This document shows positions 49,100 through 57,809 of a DNA stretch of 64,000 bases, one piece after another; the stretch's first letter is position 1, and each line of letters opens with the position of its first letter. The notes beneath the pieces are model-generated. The model saw nothing but the letters and a program-made list of their open reading frames with translations, searched no databases and was not told the DNA's origin. The position numbers and the translations under genes were made by a program. The DNA comes from Antedon mediterranea (taxonomy: Eukaryota > Echinodermata > Crinoidea > Comatulida > Antedonidae): NCBI RefSeq assembly GCF_964355755.1, contig NC_092677.1, positions 3,043,001-3,107,000 on the forward strand, in the 5' to 3' direction.

Positions 49100-49256
49100 A
49101 TATAAATTGGGCAGAATTCGGAAGTGAACTCGGCAACTCTTTGTTCTGCCAATTCGTGACGTAACCAAAAGCCGCCATATTCATCGATTTCACACAAGGA
49201 AAACGAGTCGAGGACGTTGTGCTGTTTTTTCTGGAATTCTCGTTTGAAATACACCG
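49100..49256 (+). promoter_or_regulatory. Probable RBM39 promoter and non-coding first exon
   Basis: Contains a CRE-like TGACGTAA at 49157-49164 and a YY1-type GCCGCCATATT at 49171-49181, then purine-rich sequence ending ACACCG|GTAAAT, a usable donor at 49257. The first coding exon has an acceptor 16 bases before the ATG, so a separate 5' UTR exon is required; this is the best candidate. Confidence 0.45.
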
Positions 49257-49662
49257 GTAAATTTATATTTTTATGGATTGAATAAGTGTATATATATTAA
49301 GCAATAAATAGAGAATTGATTTAGTAGAAATTATGTTTTTAATAGATTGCTAGTGATCGTTTTATACTCGAGCCCAAGTTAAGTAGCGTCCAGCAAAAAA
49401 GCATTTTTCAAGCAAGATAATGCAATTTTGTCGGCAGGTCATGCTGCATTCTTTTGGGCTGTGTACGATTTTTTGTAACTGGGTGCAACTTTAGGCTTTC
49501 TTTGGTATCTTTCTCACGGTCACCATGTTTGTAGTAGGCCTCATACTGTTGCTTGTTTGTTGCTTGACTATTTTTCAATTACATTACTTCACTTTTTGTA
49601 CAGTATCGTCATCAAATGAATGAATTTTTTTTTTTTTTTTTTGCAGACTTTACACAAGCAAT

Positions 49663-52600
49663 ATGATGGCTGAAGACATTGATGTTGAAGCTATGCTGGA
49701 AGCACCCTACAAAAAAAATGTAAGCATTTATTACGGGATAAGATAATTTACACAGAGTTAGAGAAATACTTTCATTTAGAAGGGTCTACTAAAATTACAA
49801 TGTAATTTTTCTGCGAAAAAAAACATAATACATGCATGCAAGGAATCCATAATGCTCTACCTCAACATAGTAAATCAATATTTTTTTTTTCATAGTTTTT
49901 AGAAATAAAGAATCTTAAATTTTTATCAAGTTTATTTTTTTATTTGAATAACCAGAAAAAAAAGTAATGATGTAAAATGTGAGTTTTTTTTTCGCATGAA
50001 TTGTTGTCTTTAACAAGTATTTAAGTATAGGGAGATATTCAATTCAACAATTAAACTTTTTTGTTTAAAATTTATTGTAGGAATGAGACGAGTATATAAA
50101 GGAAATGCGTGTAATTCTGTGGTTTGTATTCTAATTGTGATGAATGATATAAAATTAATAAATATTAAAATTATTGACCTTCCGACGACACTAAAAAATA
50201 ATAGTGTTTTCTCTTATAGCGTATTAATTATTGCACTGACATTTAGCTGATGCCATATGGCTAAATACATAATTATTGCATAATAATAAAATACAATTTT
50301 TTGTGTAAAAGAGAGCTTAGGGTGCAAAATATTGAGTTGAAAATGCTAGGAGGTTAAACAAAGACTTGTTAATGTTAAAAGATGTGCTAGCTAGAAAGCA
50401 ATTGGTCCTTAGGTCGTTAAAAGCTAATAGTTTTAATCAATAGGCAGGCCTACTATGTTAGGCAGAATTTTGTGTGTGTGAAGTTGGTTGTGATTTGAGT
50501 GAGCCAATTATTGATATTTTTGCCAATTTCATTTCTTATAGACTCACATTGACTTGAGTGATGGTCGCTGAAAATGATGAGGTCGTTAACCTCTGCTCCT
50601 ACATATAATCTCGCTGAACTTTGACCTTGGGTCATAAACATCTTGAAGGTTTAAAGATCAACAATATAATGTTTACAATGTTCAACATAGTTTAATAACT
50701 ATTCTTGAAAAACAGTTAAATTTATTCGTCTGTGTTTCAATGATTTAACTTGGCTCAATTTGAAGCCGATCCACTTCTTCCCAGCATTGTCTCTCTTATA
50801 CCAAAAAATAATACTATTCGATTGATAAATCAATAATAATATTCTCCAATTTTGAATTTCTGGAGAAATTAATTTTCTGATCTAGAGAATGTAATATAAA
50901 ATATCCTTGCATAAACTCTTTAAGTTAAATTTCTATTTTATGATTTTCGTGAATTCTTGTGATGCATTATAATTTTGGTTTTTATTAATCAAAAAGTTGC
51001 AGGCATGTAATTATTATATAGAACCAAAACGTTACAGGCATGGAATTATACGTTGCATAAACTAGCCACTTTGCTAGGCTACCCAAAAAAAGATGTTTTA
51101 ATAATTGTTTAAAAAAAACGTACTAAAAGTTATCCAATCCCCTCTTGCTGTAGGGTTGTATGAGACAAGATATGGAAGAATCGAAGATGGTACTCTTGGA
51201 CCAATCCTTCACACTTACCATAACGGCTGGCGGCTCTATTTGTGGGAAGGGCGGGTTTTTTTTAGGTACCTGTACCGGTTTACCTGTTCCAACTGAACTT
51301 GGCAACAATTCAAAGAAATTTACTGGAATTAAAATGCTTTATACACTCACTCTTAGACAGTTGTAGATGCTCACAATGATTATACATATGTTATGTTAAC
51401 AATTTTTTCTCCAATGCATAGCCCAATAGTTGTTATGTAGTCATATATATATATCAACAGGCACAGAACAAATTCTAAACTAGCTGGTGATATTATTACT
51501 GAATATTAATTAATTTAAAACAATAAAGATGAAGAAACATGTGAGAATGAACCTTGAACCTTCTGCTTGATATGCAGATTTCCTAACCATTATATATATT
51601 TCATTACTGAAGCACTACTTAAAAGCACATTCTGCTGTATGAAGGAAAATGTGAAAAACAATAAGACAGTGATAGGTTGAACAATTAAGCATTTTTATTA
51701 AAGAGGCGTGGCAGTTTTCATTGACAAGGAAACAAACGACAATTGTCTTTCCTTAACAAATACTATAGTACAAAACCAGTGTGATTTTATGTTGGCAGAA
51801 CCTTTCTTCCCATACCTCTAATTATGCAGTGAAATATGCAGAATGCAATTATGATAAAAAATTTAGTATTTTTCTGTACTTTGTTTCATAAGAAATATAA
51901 ACATTGTTTTCCCCAGCTGTCAAGAACTGTATCCTCAAGTAATTTTTTAATACAAATTTTCATCATTTTATAAGCAAAGTTAAAGGTGAGGCATTTAAGT
52001 AGTGGAACAATGCTATAAGCTTTTGTCATTGACACTGTATGTGTTTTTTTTCTTCTTTTCTCCTCCTCCCAACCCTGTTTGACAACCTTGCTGTTTGTTT
52101 TGGACATCTTAGGGCGATGCATCGTCACTGGCACTTTCAAAGAAAGACGAGTCAAGGAGGAGGTGAGTTTATCTATTTTCCTTTTTTTTTAATTTAAAAA
52201 AAAATCTGTCTGAATAACTAACTAAAGCTCTGTCTACACTATCAAACTTTATGTTACAAAAAACATGATGTGCCCATATATGATGATGTCATATCACTAC
52301 CATATTTGGACACATCACACTAGTTTGATAATGTAGACAGAGCTTAAGAGAAGTAACAAACTTTGTTGAATTAAAATAGTCATTTGAAATTGCACAATTA
52401 AAGGATTGGAGGATAAAATACAAATATTCTGTGTTCTAGGATAAATGGAACAGAGCATTACTTGCAATGATCCACAATTAACCTTATTTATGAAAATTAA
52501 CCTTTGACTTTTTTATGCCTATTTGGAACTATTTTCATGATTTTATAAATATTCTACAATCATTTATGAAATATTTAGCCGTCGTTTGTGAATTATCAAT

Positions 52601-55600
52601 TATTTTTAAGGCTATTGTAGCATTTGTGACTGGTTTTAGGCTAGTTCATTTATTTGTTATATTGTATAGGCCTACAAAAACTAATCTGTAACAGTATATA
52701 CAGTAATACCCTATAGTAGGTTGTGTATTATATTAATTGTGTTAGCATCATAGAAACTTTAGTTAATAAAAATATATGTCAACTGTCATTAGGTGACAGC
52801 CTGCGGACTAATAATAAAGATGTGATAAGTGGCCGTGATTGCGGCAGATTGTCATCGTAGATCACAAAGGTGGGTGATGCACAGTCTCAGGTGAGAGGTA
52901 ACTGGGCCAATTCTAACCCCCCTTCCCTGCTCAACTAAGTGGAGTTTTCCCCTCCATGCATATCTTCAATACATTCAAAATGTAGCAGAATTTATATACA
53001 TCTCCTGGTAAGATTTGAAGAAAAAAAATCTGACACCAGTTTGTCATTGTAATTACAAATAAAGAAAACCCTTACTTTTTGTTATTTAGATTAATCAAAA
53101 AACTGATTTAATGATTTTTGTTTTTCTAAATTTGTAGACATTCATCAAAGAGTAGAAGTAGAAGCCGTGACCGAGACAGACGGTAAGCTTAAATTTCTGC
53201 CTATCGTTAAATAACATGTAAACTGCATGTGATAAGTAACTTGATTTGAGAGAATATGTATATACACAATCTGTGAGAGAATGCAGAATCTGTATATACA
53301 CAATCTGTGAGCGAGTGCAGAATCTGTATATACACAATCTGTGAGCGAATGCAGAATCTGTTTGAACTTTAGCCTATTCTAAAGTTCTGTCGACACTATT
53401 AAACAAAATCAAAGTATTGTGGTGATGTGCCCGCATATCACATTTTTTTGTCACATAAAGTTTGATAGTGTAGACAGATCTTAACTCCTTGTTGTTAATC
53501 ATTGGTTTGATAGTGTAGACAGATCTTAACTCCTTGTTGTTATTCATTGGTTTGATAGTGTAGACAGATCTTAACTCCTTGTTGTTATTCATTGGTTACT
53601 GAATAAATATTATTAAGTAGGAGTGTTAGTAAATAATTGTTTTTTTTGTGTTATAACTATTTTTAGACACCGAAGCAAGAGCAAAGATAGAGAACGAAGG
53701 TATGTAGTTTATTTCAACTTGAATTTCTCTTAGTAACTTCATCCATACCCAAGTGTAGTACAATTTTGATCATTTTTATACCCCATTTGTGTGTTTATGT
53801 TTATAGATACAATAAATTAAAATATATGAAATTATGTATTTTATGTAAATTTCTCTACCACCAGGAAAGAGAGAGATCGTCACGGGCGTAGCGGAAGCCG
53901 CGACAGGTCAAGAAGAGATGGAGACAGAAATAGAGAACGTGAACGAGACCGTAGTAGAGGATGGGAAAGGGATGGTGAACGAAATAGAGGTGGAAGAGAT
54001 AAAGAACGCGACAGAGGAAGTAGAGGTCGTGATAGAGAAAGAGACAATTATAGAGGAGGTGAGAGACGAGAACGAAAGGAGAAGCGAAGCAGATCAAAAG
54101 AACGAGTGAAAGAAGTAGTTGTACCTGAACCAAGGTTAGTCTTATTTTTGGTTATTACAATTTAACACTGAGGATTATTTTAAAGACTTTTTAAGAGTTT
54201 AATATATTAATAGCAGAGATCTTAAAATATACATCCTCCTTGTACAGGAAATAAAAACCAAGTTAATTAATATCAGATTTGCAATCTTGTTTTTGACTTG
54301 ACTTTAAGTATGATCTCAAAGGCCTGGCCTGAACAATTAGTAGAGGAATAATACTTAGATTATATTAACAATAGCATTAAAACCTAGTTTAAATTAGATG
54401 TTGATATTATATTATACTAGTGTAGTTCGAATATACAGTAGCAAAATATAAAATAAAAAGAACAGAATTTTAAATAGTAATGAACTATTAATATTTTTCT
54501 ATTTAGACCAAAATCTCCTGAGTTGACGCCAGAACAAAGAGATGCAAGAACCGTGTTTTGCATGCAGCTCTCGGCAAGAATCAGACCGAGAGATTTAGAA
54601 GAATTTTTCTCGGCAGTTGGAGAAGTAAGATTAAACATTCATTATAATACAGTTTATTTTGTTAAAACTGGATAGTTTTAAAACTTAAAATTAAGCTAAA
54701 TTTTAATAATCATTTTGTTTGTATTGCAGGTGAGAGACGTTAGAATAATTTCAGACCGCAACTCTAGAAGATCAAAAGGAGTTGCTTACGTCGAGTTTAA
54801 AGATGAAAAGTGTATTCCATTGGTAAGTAGTCTCTTGCTGTTTATTTTAGAATAAAATCAAACTTTAAATTGGCCATTTTGTAGTTTTAATCATTAATTG
54901 AGTATCTATTATGTGGCATTAAAATTGTTTACAAATGGTATTTTTTTATATCATTTAAATTATAGTAGGTAATTGGCATATGTGATTGGGTAACCTTTGA
55001 GCTAAATTGAAAATCAGTTAATGTTAGTTTTAACATTAATACTTAATGTAAACTCTAGGTGCTGCTAGTTAAAACACATCACAACACATGTATTGAACAT
55101 ATTGAGACTTTTACACCTTTTTGTTATTTTGGTAGGCAATTGGATTGAACAATCAGAAATTGCTAGGAGTGCCAATCATAGTACAAGTGTCACAAGCAGA
55201 GAAGAACAGAACAGCCAGCAGTAATCTGACCCTTCAGAAGGGTAGTCAGGGACCCATGCGCCTCTATGTTGGCTCTCTGCATTTCAACATCACAGAGGAG
55301 ATGTTGAGAGGGATATTTGAGCCATTCGGACATGTAAGTTGAATGATTTGATGATACTCTAAAGCCCTGTCTACAATAGCAGACTAGTTGGACAAATGTA
55401 ATGGGCTCAAATATGATAGTGATATGACATCATGACCATATATAGGCACATCACACATTTTTGTTTAAAAAGTTTGATAGTGTAGACAGAACTTGAGGTT
55501 TACTTCACTTGGAAAAATGTAGGTTTTTGAGGCCTTACACACAAAAAAGTGTGATATGTCCTAATATGGTAGTGATATCCCCAATATGGTAGTGATATGA

Positions 55601-57809
55601 TGTCATCATTTCCATATTTTGGCACATCAAATTTTTATATTGCATAAAGTTTGATAGTGTAGACAGAGCTTTAGTGTGGAAATAGCCAGCTGTTCACACT
55701 TGTGATATTTTAGTAGCATATTTCTCAACCTGTTTTTGTTTATTCCAGATTGACAGTATCCAGTTGATTATGGATACAGAAACAGGTCGTTCCAAAGGAT
55801 ACGGCTTCATATCTGTAAGTTGGACAACTTTTATATTTTATTAATTTTACTCCGATAGAAAAACCATTTTTAGAGTTTTATTTTTGAAAAAGATATATAA
55901 TGATATTCACCTTAAAAAATTGACATTCCTAGCATGCACTTAATGATTATTAGATCATAACCAAGTACTACATGGCTGTGTTGAGTCTATTGTAATTATA
56001 GTAAAATATCATGTCAAAAGATTTTACTGTAATAACAAATGATTTTAGTTTGTGTCACTGTCACTGCAATAAACACCTTGTATGATTACCCCAAACAATT
56101 GCTTGCTAAATTATTGCAAAACCAAGGTTAAATAAACATAATGTAGTTTAACATGGTCCATAAATGCAGATTATTATTTTTTTTTTAATTGTTTAAATCC
56201 ATCCAGTTTCATGACTCTGAAGATGCTAAGAAAGCTTTGGAGCAGTTAAATGGCTTTGAGCTTGCAGGCCGACCAATGAAAGTCGGTAATGTAACCGAAA
56301 GGACCGACGGTCAGATGGCATCATCATTCTTGGACAATGATGAGCTAGATCGCACTGGCATTGAAATGACCACTACAGGACGATTACAACTTATGGCCAA
56401 ATTAGCAGAGGGTATGTAGAATCATTTTAAATGATTATTAGATCATAACCACGTATTACATGGCTGTATTGAGTCTATTGTAATTATAGTAAAGTATCAT
56501 GACATTAGCAATAATCCCATAGGCGGTTTGCAGTAAATAAATAAAAAAAATTATAAATAAATTATTTTTCTTGGCAGGTACTGGATTCCAGATTCCAGCT
56601 GCTGCAGCATCCGCCCTCAATCCCCTATCCCAAATGCCAGGCTCAGGCCTACCACAGATACCAGGCCAACAGCAGGTGGTTCCAGGTGCTGCACCCACTC
56701 AAGTCAACCTTCAAGCCTCACTGGCAGCTGCTCAGGCCCAGGCTCAACAACATGCCGCTGCCATAAGTCAACAGGCATCCACCGCTGCTCCGTCGTCTAT
56801 CACGGCATGCTTTATGCTCTCCAATATGTTTGACCCAAATACGTAAGTATATTTTAAAATAGCGGAATATTTACTCACCTTATATAGTCAAGTTTGAGGT
56901 TGTGCTGCCACAAGATTTCCCATTACACTCCTCAATAATAATATTTTGGATTTATAAAGCGCCTAATGTTGTGAAACCTCTAAGCATATTATTACCAAAG
57001 TCATTTTTTGATCAAACACGTATGGAAACATACTCCCGTAATGCAGCTATAAAGCGGCGCAACCCTCCTGGGTGGAGACGGCAAATGTGAATAACTAGTT
57101 TCTTACAAGCAATCCAAATAGTTGGATTCAAACACACAGTCTCATGATCTATAGTCCACACGCCCTCACGATGAACCATATGATTTATTTTGCAGTGAAT
57201 CGGGTGCTAATTGGGACGCCGATATCCGTGATGATGTTATAGAGGAATGCAATAAACATGGAGGGTGTACACATGTATATGTAGATAAAGGCTCACCCCA
57301 AGGCATGGTGTACGTTAAATGTCCTACACCTACCATAGCACAGGCCGCTGTTAGTGCATTACATGGTAGATGGTTCGCTGGTAAGCCTATTGCTATGTTT
57401 TAAATTCATTGATGACTCGTATTTCATCTCAAGCTCTGTTTACACTTTGTGACAATGTGATGTGCCCATATATGAACATAAAGATGTCATATTACTACAA
57501 TATTTAAGCATATATCAAGGCTCTGTCTACACTATCAAACTAGTTTAAGAAAAAAAGTGTGATGTGCTCAAATATGGTTATTTTGTCACATAGTTTTATA
57601 GTGTAGACAGCTTTATCGTATTATTTGTTACTGAATATATTGTAAAGCTATGTTCTACAAAACCACAGTCTATAGGGTATTACTTGAATTTGTTCTCCTC
57701 TTTTACAGGTAAAATGATCAACGCAGCGTACGTACCTCTTGCAAATTATCACACAATATTCCCACAGGCTATGAACTCATCACAACTATTATTATCTGGA
57801 CAGAGATGA
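49663..57809 (+). CDS. RBM39: RNA-binding protein 39 (CAPER alpha)
   Basis: SR-related splicing factor and transcription coactivator. Coding exons: 49663-49719, 52113-52162, 53138-53182, 53667-53699, 53865-54134, 54507-54624, 54730-54822, 55136-55333, 55749-55814, 56207-56411, 56578-56842, 57196-57380, 57709-57809; phases agree, 561 aa (human 530). Start MMAEDIDVEAMLEAPYKKN matches vertebrates; ATG at 49666 is equally possible. Arg/Ser/Asp/Glu-rich domain about 40-150. RRM1 about 165-241 (RNP1 KGVAYVEF 207-214). RRM2 about 263-340 (RNP1 KGYGFISF 304-311). An Ala/Gln-rich linker, then a UHM-type RRM3 with its RWF loop at 525-527, for binding ULM peptides such as U2AF65 and SF3B1. The RS domain has more RDRE repeats than the human one. 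Convergent with NOB1. Confidence 0.97.
51154..51265 (+). promoter_or_regulatory. Candidate RBM39 poison (NMD) exon
   Basis: In the 2.4-kb intron after the first coding exon, a pyrimidine-rich CCCCTCTTGCTGTAG acceptor is followed by 112 bases of GC-richer, purine-rich sequence (GACAAGATATGGAAGAATCG) and ends TTTAG|GTACCT. Spliced to the flanking coding exons it keeps the frame open through itself, but 112 is not a multiple of three, so the next exon is shifted and meets TAG in the following exon. RBM39 is known in vertebrates to autoregulate through such an exon; orthology is inferred, not shown. Confidence 0.4.
52225..52347. mobile_element. Family B MITE, copy 7
   Basis: TAAAGCTCTGTCTACACTAT start, TTTGATAATGTAGACAGAGC end. 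RBM39 intron just after the exon ending at 52162. Confidence 0.87.
53260..53361. repeat. 34-bp tandem repeat, about 3 copies
   Basis: The unit includes CAGAATCTGTATATACACAA then TCTGTGAGCGAGTG. RBM39 intron after exon 53138-53182. Confidence 0.85.
53380..53595. mobile_element. Family B MITE, copy 8, with its right end tandemly triplicated
   Basis: A shortened family B copy (53380-53483) whose right terminus plus flank is repeated: TTTGATAGTGTAGACAGATC followed by TTAACTCCTTGTTGTTA occurs three times with a 45-bp period up to 53595. Confidence 0.85.
55361..55494. mobile_element. Family B MITE, copy 9
   Basis: AAAGCCCTGTCTACAATAGC start, TTTGATAGTGTAGACAGAAC end. RBM39 intron after exon 55136-55333. 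Confidence 0.85.
55531..55675. mobile_element. Family B MITE, copy 10 (left end lost)
   Basis: Starts inside the interior (AAAAAGTGTGATATGTCC, two GGTAGTGATAT units) and ends AAGTTTGATAGTGTAGACAG AGCTTTAG. Only about 35 bases from copy 9 in the same intron. Confidence 0.8.
55943..56012. repeat. 70-80 bp direct duplication, intron copy 1
   Basis: TGATTATTAGATCATAACCA, TACATGGCTGTGTTGAGTC and TGTAATTATAGTAAAATATC match 56431-56508 almost exactly. The two copies lie in the introns on either side of RBM39 exon 56207-56411. Confidence 0.8.
56431..56508. repeat. 70-80 bp direct duplication, intron copy 2
   Basis: TGATTATTAGATCATAACCA, TACATGGCTGTATTGAGTC and TGTAATTATAGTAAAGTATC. See the partner at 55943-56012. 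Confidence 0.8.
56930..57180 (-). repeat. tRNA-derived SINE, reverse orientation
   Basis: Plus strand: ATTTTGGATTTATAAAGCGC (tail), AACACGTATGGAAACATACT, TCCCGTAATGCAGCTATAAA, GGGTGGAGACGGCAAATG, ATTCAAACACACAG, CCACACGCCCTC (tRNA-like head). The same family as 37560-37800. It ends just before the acceptor of the exon at 57196. Confidence 0.65.
57432..57516. mobile_element. Family B MITE, half copy 11
   Basis: AAGCTCTGTTTACACTTTGT start and CCATATATGAACATAAAG; the right half is missing where the next copy begins. Confidence 0.7.
57517..57614. mobile_element. Family B MITE, copy 12 (internally deleted)
   Basis: AAGGCTCTGTCTACACTATC start, ATAGTGTAGACAGCTTTA end, about 98 bp. Abuts half copy 11 in the last RBM39 intron. 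Confidence 0.82.

What the first reader, a model, noticed from the sequence alone, without database searches (positions are those of the whole stretch)
51154..51265. Candidate poison exon in RBM39, possibly ancient autoregulation
Seen: a GC-richer 112-bp block with acceptor and donor inside an AT-rich 2.4-kb intron, open in the incoming frame, whose inclusion shifts the next exon to a stop (TAG in the exon starting 53138). Known: vertebrate RBM39 limits its own level through a poison exon early in the gene. Inference: the same control may exist in this invertebrate, which would date it before vertebrates.
Basis: partly seen in the sequence, partly recalled or inferred. Interest (0 to 1): 0.6.

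Follow-up and report, generated by a model that had tools for sequence, protein, structure and literature searches.

The report
Doubtful poison exon in crinoid-like RBM39
The proposed self-limiting exon in this animal's RBM39 gene has the right letters at its edges, but its splice signals are no better than chance; a cluster of strong splice-donor sites one intron further on is a better place to look, and self-limiting splicing of this gene has already been reported in flies and worms.

Summary
Block 51154-51265 has AG before it and GT after it, is open in the incoming frame, is 1 mod 3 long, and its inclusion gives TAG at 53153-53155. As evidence for an exon this is weak. The acceptor is the best in the intron, but 23% of same-length control tiles hold one as good. 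The donor (TAG|gtacct) scores below all 12 real donors of the gene. About 61-63% of tiles hold a pair at least as strong, 60% hold an equal GC peak, and 96.5% of random segments of this intron would also be 'poison'. The element that makes human exon 2b RBM39-dependent, N(G/U)NUUUG at the 3' splice site, is missing, although the RRM2 residues that read it are identical. The block is single-copy and matches nothing. Conservation and RNA could not be tested. Intron 3 holds an outlier: four strong donors (52869, 52890, 52897, 53007) within 140 nt, a pattern absent from 556 kb-strands of control; segments ending at the first three put a stop in frame. That is the better candidate. That RBM39 splicing-NMD control predates vertebrates is already in the literature (fly caper, worm rbm-39).

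The parts
49647..49719 (+). RBM39 exon 2, ATG at 49663 (MMAEDIDVEAMLEAPYKKN), ends in phase 0, donor AAT|gtaagc
49720..52112 (+). intron 2, 2393 bp, 30% G+C
51121..51127 (+). TACTAAA branch-like site upstream of the candidate acceptor (A 28 nt before the exon start)
51236..51242 (+). CUAUUUG, the only match to the RRM2 motif N(G/U)NUUUG in the block; inside the exon, not at its 3' splice site
51422..51595 (+). copy of a dispersed repeat (over 50 scored matches, about 70-88% identical for the long ones) downstream of the block; overlaps one of the rival splice-site pairs
51799..51985 (+). highest-scoring splice-site pair of intron 2, using the intron's strongest donor AAG|gtgagg (8.0); TAA in frame; single copy
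52113..52162 (+). RBM39 exon 3 (50 nt, phase 0 to 2); three N(G/U)NUUUG motifs in the 45 nt before it
52163..53137 (+). intron 3, 975 bp, holds the donor cluster
52670..52890 (+). best-scoring splice-site pair in the introns of the gene (15.1); stop 19 nt into the segment when joined to exon 3; single copy
52793..52897 (+). G+C-rich core of intron 3 ending in tandem donors 52869 CACAAAG|gtgggt (6.6), 52890 CTCAG|gtgaga (7.8), 52897 GAG|gtaact (3.8); stop in frame from every candidate acceptor tried; preferred candidate region for unproductive splicing
53007..53007 (+). fourth strong donor of the cluster, CTG|gtaaga (5.3), last exon base
53138..53182 (+). RBM39 exon 4; carries TAG at 53153-53155 when the 112-nt block is included
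53667..57808 (+). remaining RBM39 exons (10 exons): RS domain, RRM1, RRM2, linker, RRM3

Best explanation
Block 51154-51265 is most likely ordinary intron DNA that happens to hold a good 3' splice-site-like sequence and a poor 5' one: a pseudo-exon, spliced in rarely or never. If this RBM39 limits its own level by unproductive splicing, as its orthologues do, the more likely site is intron 3. There a segment ending at the tandem donors 52869/52890/52897 would be kept when RBM39 protein is abundant. RBM39 would bind U-rich RNA at the 3' splice site through RRM2 and hold U2 snRNP through RRM3. Inclusion puts a stop in frame just after exon 3, and the mRNA would be degraded by NMD. Shown here: gene identity, frames and stops, chance level of the block, the donor outlier in intron 3, identity of the RRM2 contact residues. 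Inferred: use of the intron-3 sites, dependence on RBM39 level, decay by NMD.
For: Pair score of the block reached by 61-63% of control tiles; donor below all real donors of the gene; 96.5% of random segments of this intron would be 'poison'; no N(G/U)NUUUG at its acceptor, whereas the human exon depends on CUCUUUG directly before the AG, although the nine RRM2 residues compared are identical. Intron 3: four donors of 3.8 or more, two of 6.6 or more, within 140 nt; that pattern 0 times, and two such strong donors once, in 556 kb-strands of control; best donor of every other intron except intron 2 is at most 1.7; single copy; all combinations tested stop early. Unproductive splicing of RBM39 orthologues in fly and worm is published.
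Against: Poison exons often have weak, regulated splice sites, so a weak donor does not exclude the block; its acceptor is the best of the intron and sits at the intron's G+C peak. The intron-3 cluster was found after the fact while scanning about 8 kb of introns (expected about 0.014 such donor pairs in that length), with thresholds set after seeing it, and no acceptor there is as clear as the donors. It could instead be an alternative first exon (ATG at 52877 in frame with exon 4) or unused. No RNA data and no second species were available.
Confidence: 0.55

Rival explanations
1. Block 51154-51265 is a genuine regulated poison exon: rising RBM39 helps U2 snRNP at its 3' splice site despite the weak donor, inclusion gives TAG at 53153 and NMD.
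For: Best acceptor of the intron with a TACTAAA branch-like site; at the intron's G+C peak; open in frame with a downstream stop, and the human exon is also said to give a stop downstream (PMC6547761); single copy; weak donor predicted to pair locally, as a superficial parallel to human SLi.
Against: All features together are at chance level; no RRM2 motif at the acceptor; folds are no more stable than shuffles (z from -0.28 to +1.60).
Confidence: 0.13
2. The strong donor cluster of intron 3 belongs to an alternative first exon: a downstream promoter makes an mRNA starting MHSL- at 52877 that joins exon 4 in frame and lacks the N-terminal residues encoded by exons 2 and 3.
For: ATG at 52877 is in frame with exon 4 through donor 52890; G+C-rich single-copy patch.
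Against: The frame match has a 1 in 3 chance; no promoter evidence; three tandem donors are not needed for a first exon.
Confidence: 0.15
3. A poison exon of intron 2 uses the strong donor 51985 (for example 51799-51985, in-frame TAA), not the reader's block.
For: Strongest donor of intron 2 (8.0; 6% of control tiles reach it) and pair score 14.9; stops in frame; single copy.
Against: 12% of control tiles have as good a pair; acceptors are mediocre; no RRM2 motif nearby.
Confidence: 0.12
4. The G+C-rich block is a relic or an antisense exon: a decayed coding or repeat fragment, or an exon on the minus strand using donor 51219 (ATG|gtaagt).
For: The minus strand carries a better donor (5.7) than the plus strand in the same patch; open frames of 63 and 71 codons cross it.
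Against: No match in Pfam or Rfam, no convincing match in the PDB, no second copy in the genome as DNA or protein; minus-strand acceptors are weak.
Confidence: 0.05

Closest known systems
Human RBM39 autoregulatory poison exon 2b (Campagne et al. 2023, PMC10477243)
   Same: Same gene, early intron, cassette whose inclusion gives a premature stop; RRM2 contact residues identical in this species
   Different: Human exon has CUCUUUG directly before the acceptor AG and a 5' splice site paired with ACCUUUG; the block has neither motif, and inclusion, RBM39 dependence and NMD are untested here
Drosophila caper poison exons (PMC10332324, PMC8652244)
   Same: Invertebrate RBM39 orthologue, several PTC-containing isoforms; Caper protein binds its own mRNA
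   Different: Shown from annotated transcripts and immunoprecipitation; their sequences do not align to human or mouse; not compared with this locus
SRSF5 poison exon conserved in position from anemone to human (Lareau and Brenner 2015, PMC4379411)
   Same: Model for an ancient poison exon kept at one intron position, detectable even in sea urchin
   Different: There ESTs and sequence similarity support it; neither is available here

Membership tests
RBM39 autoregulatory poison exon (human exon 2b type) | lies in an early intron of an RBM39 orthologue | tested here: met
   RBM39 gene model and domains; identity of the intron with the human one rests on my own knowledge and was not tested
RBM39 autoregulatory poison exon (human exon 2b type) | usable acceptor and donor | tested here: inconclusive
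   acceptor 5.8 (10.4 with branch site), donor 0.1; pair at chance level
RBM39 autoregulatory poison exon (human exon 2b type) | inclusion creates a premature stop upstream of exon junctions | tested here: met
   TAG at 53153-53155; but 96.5% of random segments of this intron do the same
RBM39 autoregulatory poison exon (human exon 2b type) | RRM2 motif N(G/U)NUUUG immediately upstream of the acceptor AG | tested here: not met
   none in the 45 nt before 51154
[quoted passage not shown]
   donor GGTACC is predicted paired, but z is +0.58 for 51180-51290
RBM39 autoregulatory poison exon (human exon 2b type) | RRM2 that can read UUUG | tested here: met
   nine contact residues compared, all identical to human
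RBM39 autoregulatory poison exon (human exon 2b type) | sequence conservation in relatives | not testable with these tools
   no other echinoderm or vertebrate genome is held
RBM39 autoregulatory poison exon (human exon 2b type) | inclusion rises with RBM39 level and product is degraded by NMD | not testable with these tools
   no RNA data

The most novel reading that the evidence does not exclude
This crinoid-like RBM39 carries an unproductive exon with tandem donors in intron 3 (ending at 52869/52890/52897) that autoregulates the gene, possibly at another intron than the human exon 2b, so that the feedback is kept while the exon turns over.
Probability: 0.35. Interest if true: 0.4.

Novelty: new member of a known kind. 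Interest (0 to 1): 0.2.

Why it matters
If an echinoderm RBM39 has an unproductive exon, it adds a non-vertebrate deuterostome to the record of feedback on this splicing factor and helps tell whether the exon itself or only the habit of having one is old. Fly and worm data already point to the habit, so the gain is one more data point, plus a concrete target for RT-PCR.

Tried and rejected
Rfam over the gene and intron 3: nothing above threshold. tRNA scan of the locus: none. Pfam, PDB and whole-genome searches with frames crossing the block: nothing convincing. RNA folding of the block: not more stable than shuffles. Human elements CTCTTTG and ACCTTTG: none in intron 2. The one N(G/U)NUUUG directly before an AG in intron 2 (50491, TGATTTGAG) is expected by chance (0.71 expected) and has no pyrimidine tract. 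'CAAAG|GT' at donor 52869 equals the complement of the human ACCUUUG, but one 7-mer is not evidence of homology. Paper searches for a sea-urchin, other-invertebrate or ultraconserved RBM39 exon gave no sequence to align. The human exon 2b sequence is not in the text of the papers read, so no alignment was possible.

Full report
What the locus is. The window lies on contig C8 of a 354-Mb assembly with 11 large contigs, which fits a crinoid (own knowledge of chromosome number; not tested). The + strand from about 49150 to 57808 is an RBM39 gene. The exon model gives a 561-aa protein with an RS domain, three RRMs and the RBM39-specific linker PF15519. The closest solved proteins are human RBM39 chains, and a whole-genome protein search finds this one locus.

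The observation. The coordinates and frame logic are correct. Exon 2 ends at 49719 in phase 0. Block 51154-51265 is 112 nt, open in that frame, and shifts exons 3 and 4 so that TAG appears at 53153-53155. The peptide would be 78 residues, and many junctions follow the stop, so NMD would be expected under the usual rule.

Is it more than chance? I scored acceptors (pyrimidine tract, AG context, best branch site) and donors with generic metazoan matrices. The acceptor is the best of intron 2 and has TACTAAA 28 nt upstream. The donor TAG|gtacct scores 0.1, below the twelve real donors of the gene (0.6 to 8.3). In 100 control tiles of the same length from elsewhere in the genome, 23% hold an acceptor as good, 61-63% hold a pair as good and 60% hold an equally G+C-rich 112-nt peak. 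Random introns with the same dinucleotide content give a pair as good in 74% of cases without the branch term. The 'poison' property is nearly automatic: 96.5% of random 25-250-nt pieces of this intron would give an early stop. Within intron 2 three other pairs score as well or better, the best using donor 51985 AAG|gtgagg.

What else could the block be? It has no second copy in the genome as DNA or protein and no Pfam or Rfam relative; the only PDB hit is insignificant (E 1.1). It is therefore neither a recognisable repeat nor a recognisable gene fragment. The repeat that does lie in intron 2 starts 157 nt further on (51422-51595). The minus strand of the block has a better donor (51219, ATG|gtaagt) than the plus strand, but only weak acceptors.

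Comparison with the human element. In human, RBM39 promotes inclusion of exon 2b. Dependence on RBM39 needs CUCUUUG directly before the acceptor AG, read by RRM2, and the 5' splice site is held in a stem-loop with ACCUUUG (PMC10477243). The nine RRM2 residues I compared are identical in this species, so the reading ability is probably kept. Yet the block has no such motif in the 45 nt before its acceptor, and no significant fold. It works like the human exon only in the trivial sense of introducing a stop, and one defining feature was tested and not met. Whether human exon 2b sits in the homologous intron was not tested.

A better candidate. Scanning all introns, only intron 3 stands out. Within 140 nt it has donors 52869 CACAAAG|gtgggt, 52890 CTCAG|gtgaga, 52897 GAG|gtaact and 53007 CTG|gtaaga, scoring 6.6, 7.8, 3.8 and 5.3. 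The best donor of every other intron apart from intron 2 is at most 1.7. In 556 kb-strands of control the full pattern never occurs and two such strong donors occur together once, so about 0.014 such pairs are expected over the roughly 8 kb of introns scanned; the thresholds were set after seeing the cluster. The patch is single copy and 49% G+C. Each acceptor-donor combination tested there puts a stop in frame 1 to 58 nt into the segment. The acceptors are less clear: 52670 scores best with the branch term, and 52793 or 52800 would give short exons. An ATG at 52877 in frame with exon 4 leaves an alternative first exon open. I note as a coincidence only that CAAAG|GT matches the complement of the human ACCUUUG.

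Other lead. The acceptor of constitutive exon 3 (52113) has three N(G/U)NUUUG motifs in 45 nt, against 0.2 expected and 0 or 1 at the other acceptors. If RBM39 acts on its own pre-mRNA here, it might do so at this site.

What is known. A review lists RBM39, Rbm39, Caper and rbm-39 among AS-NMD-regulated genes conserved across Metazoa. It states that fly caper has three poison exons that do not align to mouse or human, and concludes that the mechanism rather than the sequence is selected (PMC8652244). Caper binds its own mRNA (PMC10332324). The human exon is 98.6% identical to Xenopus (PMC6547761). SRSF5 shows that a poison exon can keep its place from anemone to human, and its paralogues show that such exons turn over after duplication (PMC4379411). 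So 'older than vertebrates' is not new, and an unalignable exon in another intron would fit that pattern.

Verdict. Unproductive splicing somewhere in this gene is likely from orthologues, and intron 3 is where I would look first. No step rests on RNA or on a second species, which is the main limit.

Noticed in passing
52869-53007: Four strong 5' splice-site-like sequences within 140 nt in intron 3 of RBM39, a pattern absent from 556 kb-strands of control DNA; used here as the better candidate.
   Followed up: partly
52068-52112: Three N(G/U)NUUUG (RBM39 RRM2) motifs in the 45 nt before constitutive exon 3, against 0.2 expected.
   Followed up: partly
52230-52340, 53387-53567, 55367-55666, 57523-57610 and further sites upstream in the window: CTGTCTACACTATCAAACT occurs 21 times in the window in both orientations (0.03 expected), often as inverted pairs about 70-190 nt apart: probably the ends of a short dispersed inverted-repeat element.
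   Followed up: partly
51422-51595: Dispersed repeat with over 50 scored matches in the genome, inside intron 2; not identified.
   Followed up: no
53251-53597: Two tandem arrays in intron 4, periods 34 and 45 nt; the 45-nt unit contains the end of the dispersed element.
   Followed up: no
52877-52890: ATG in frame with exon 4 directly before the strong donor 52890, compatible with an alternative start.
   Followed up: no
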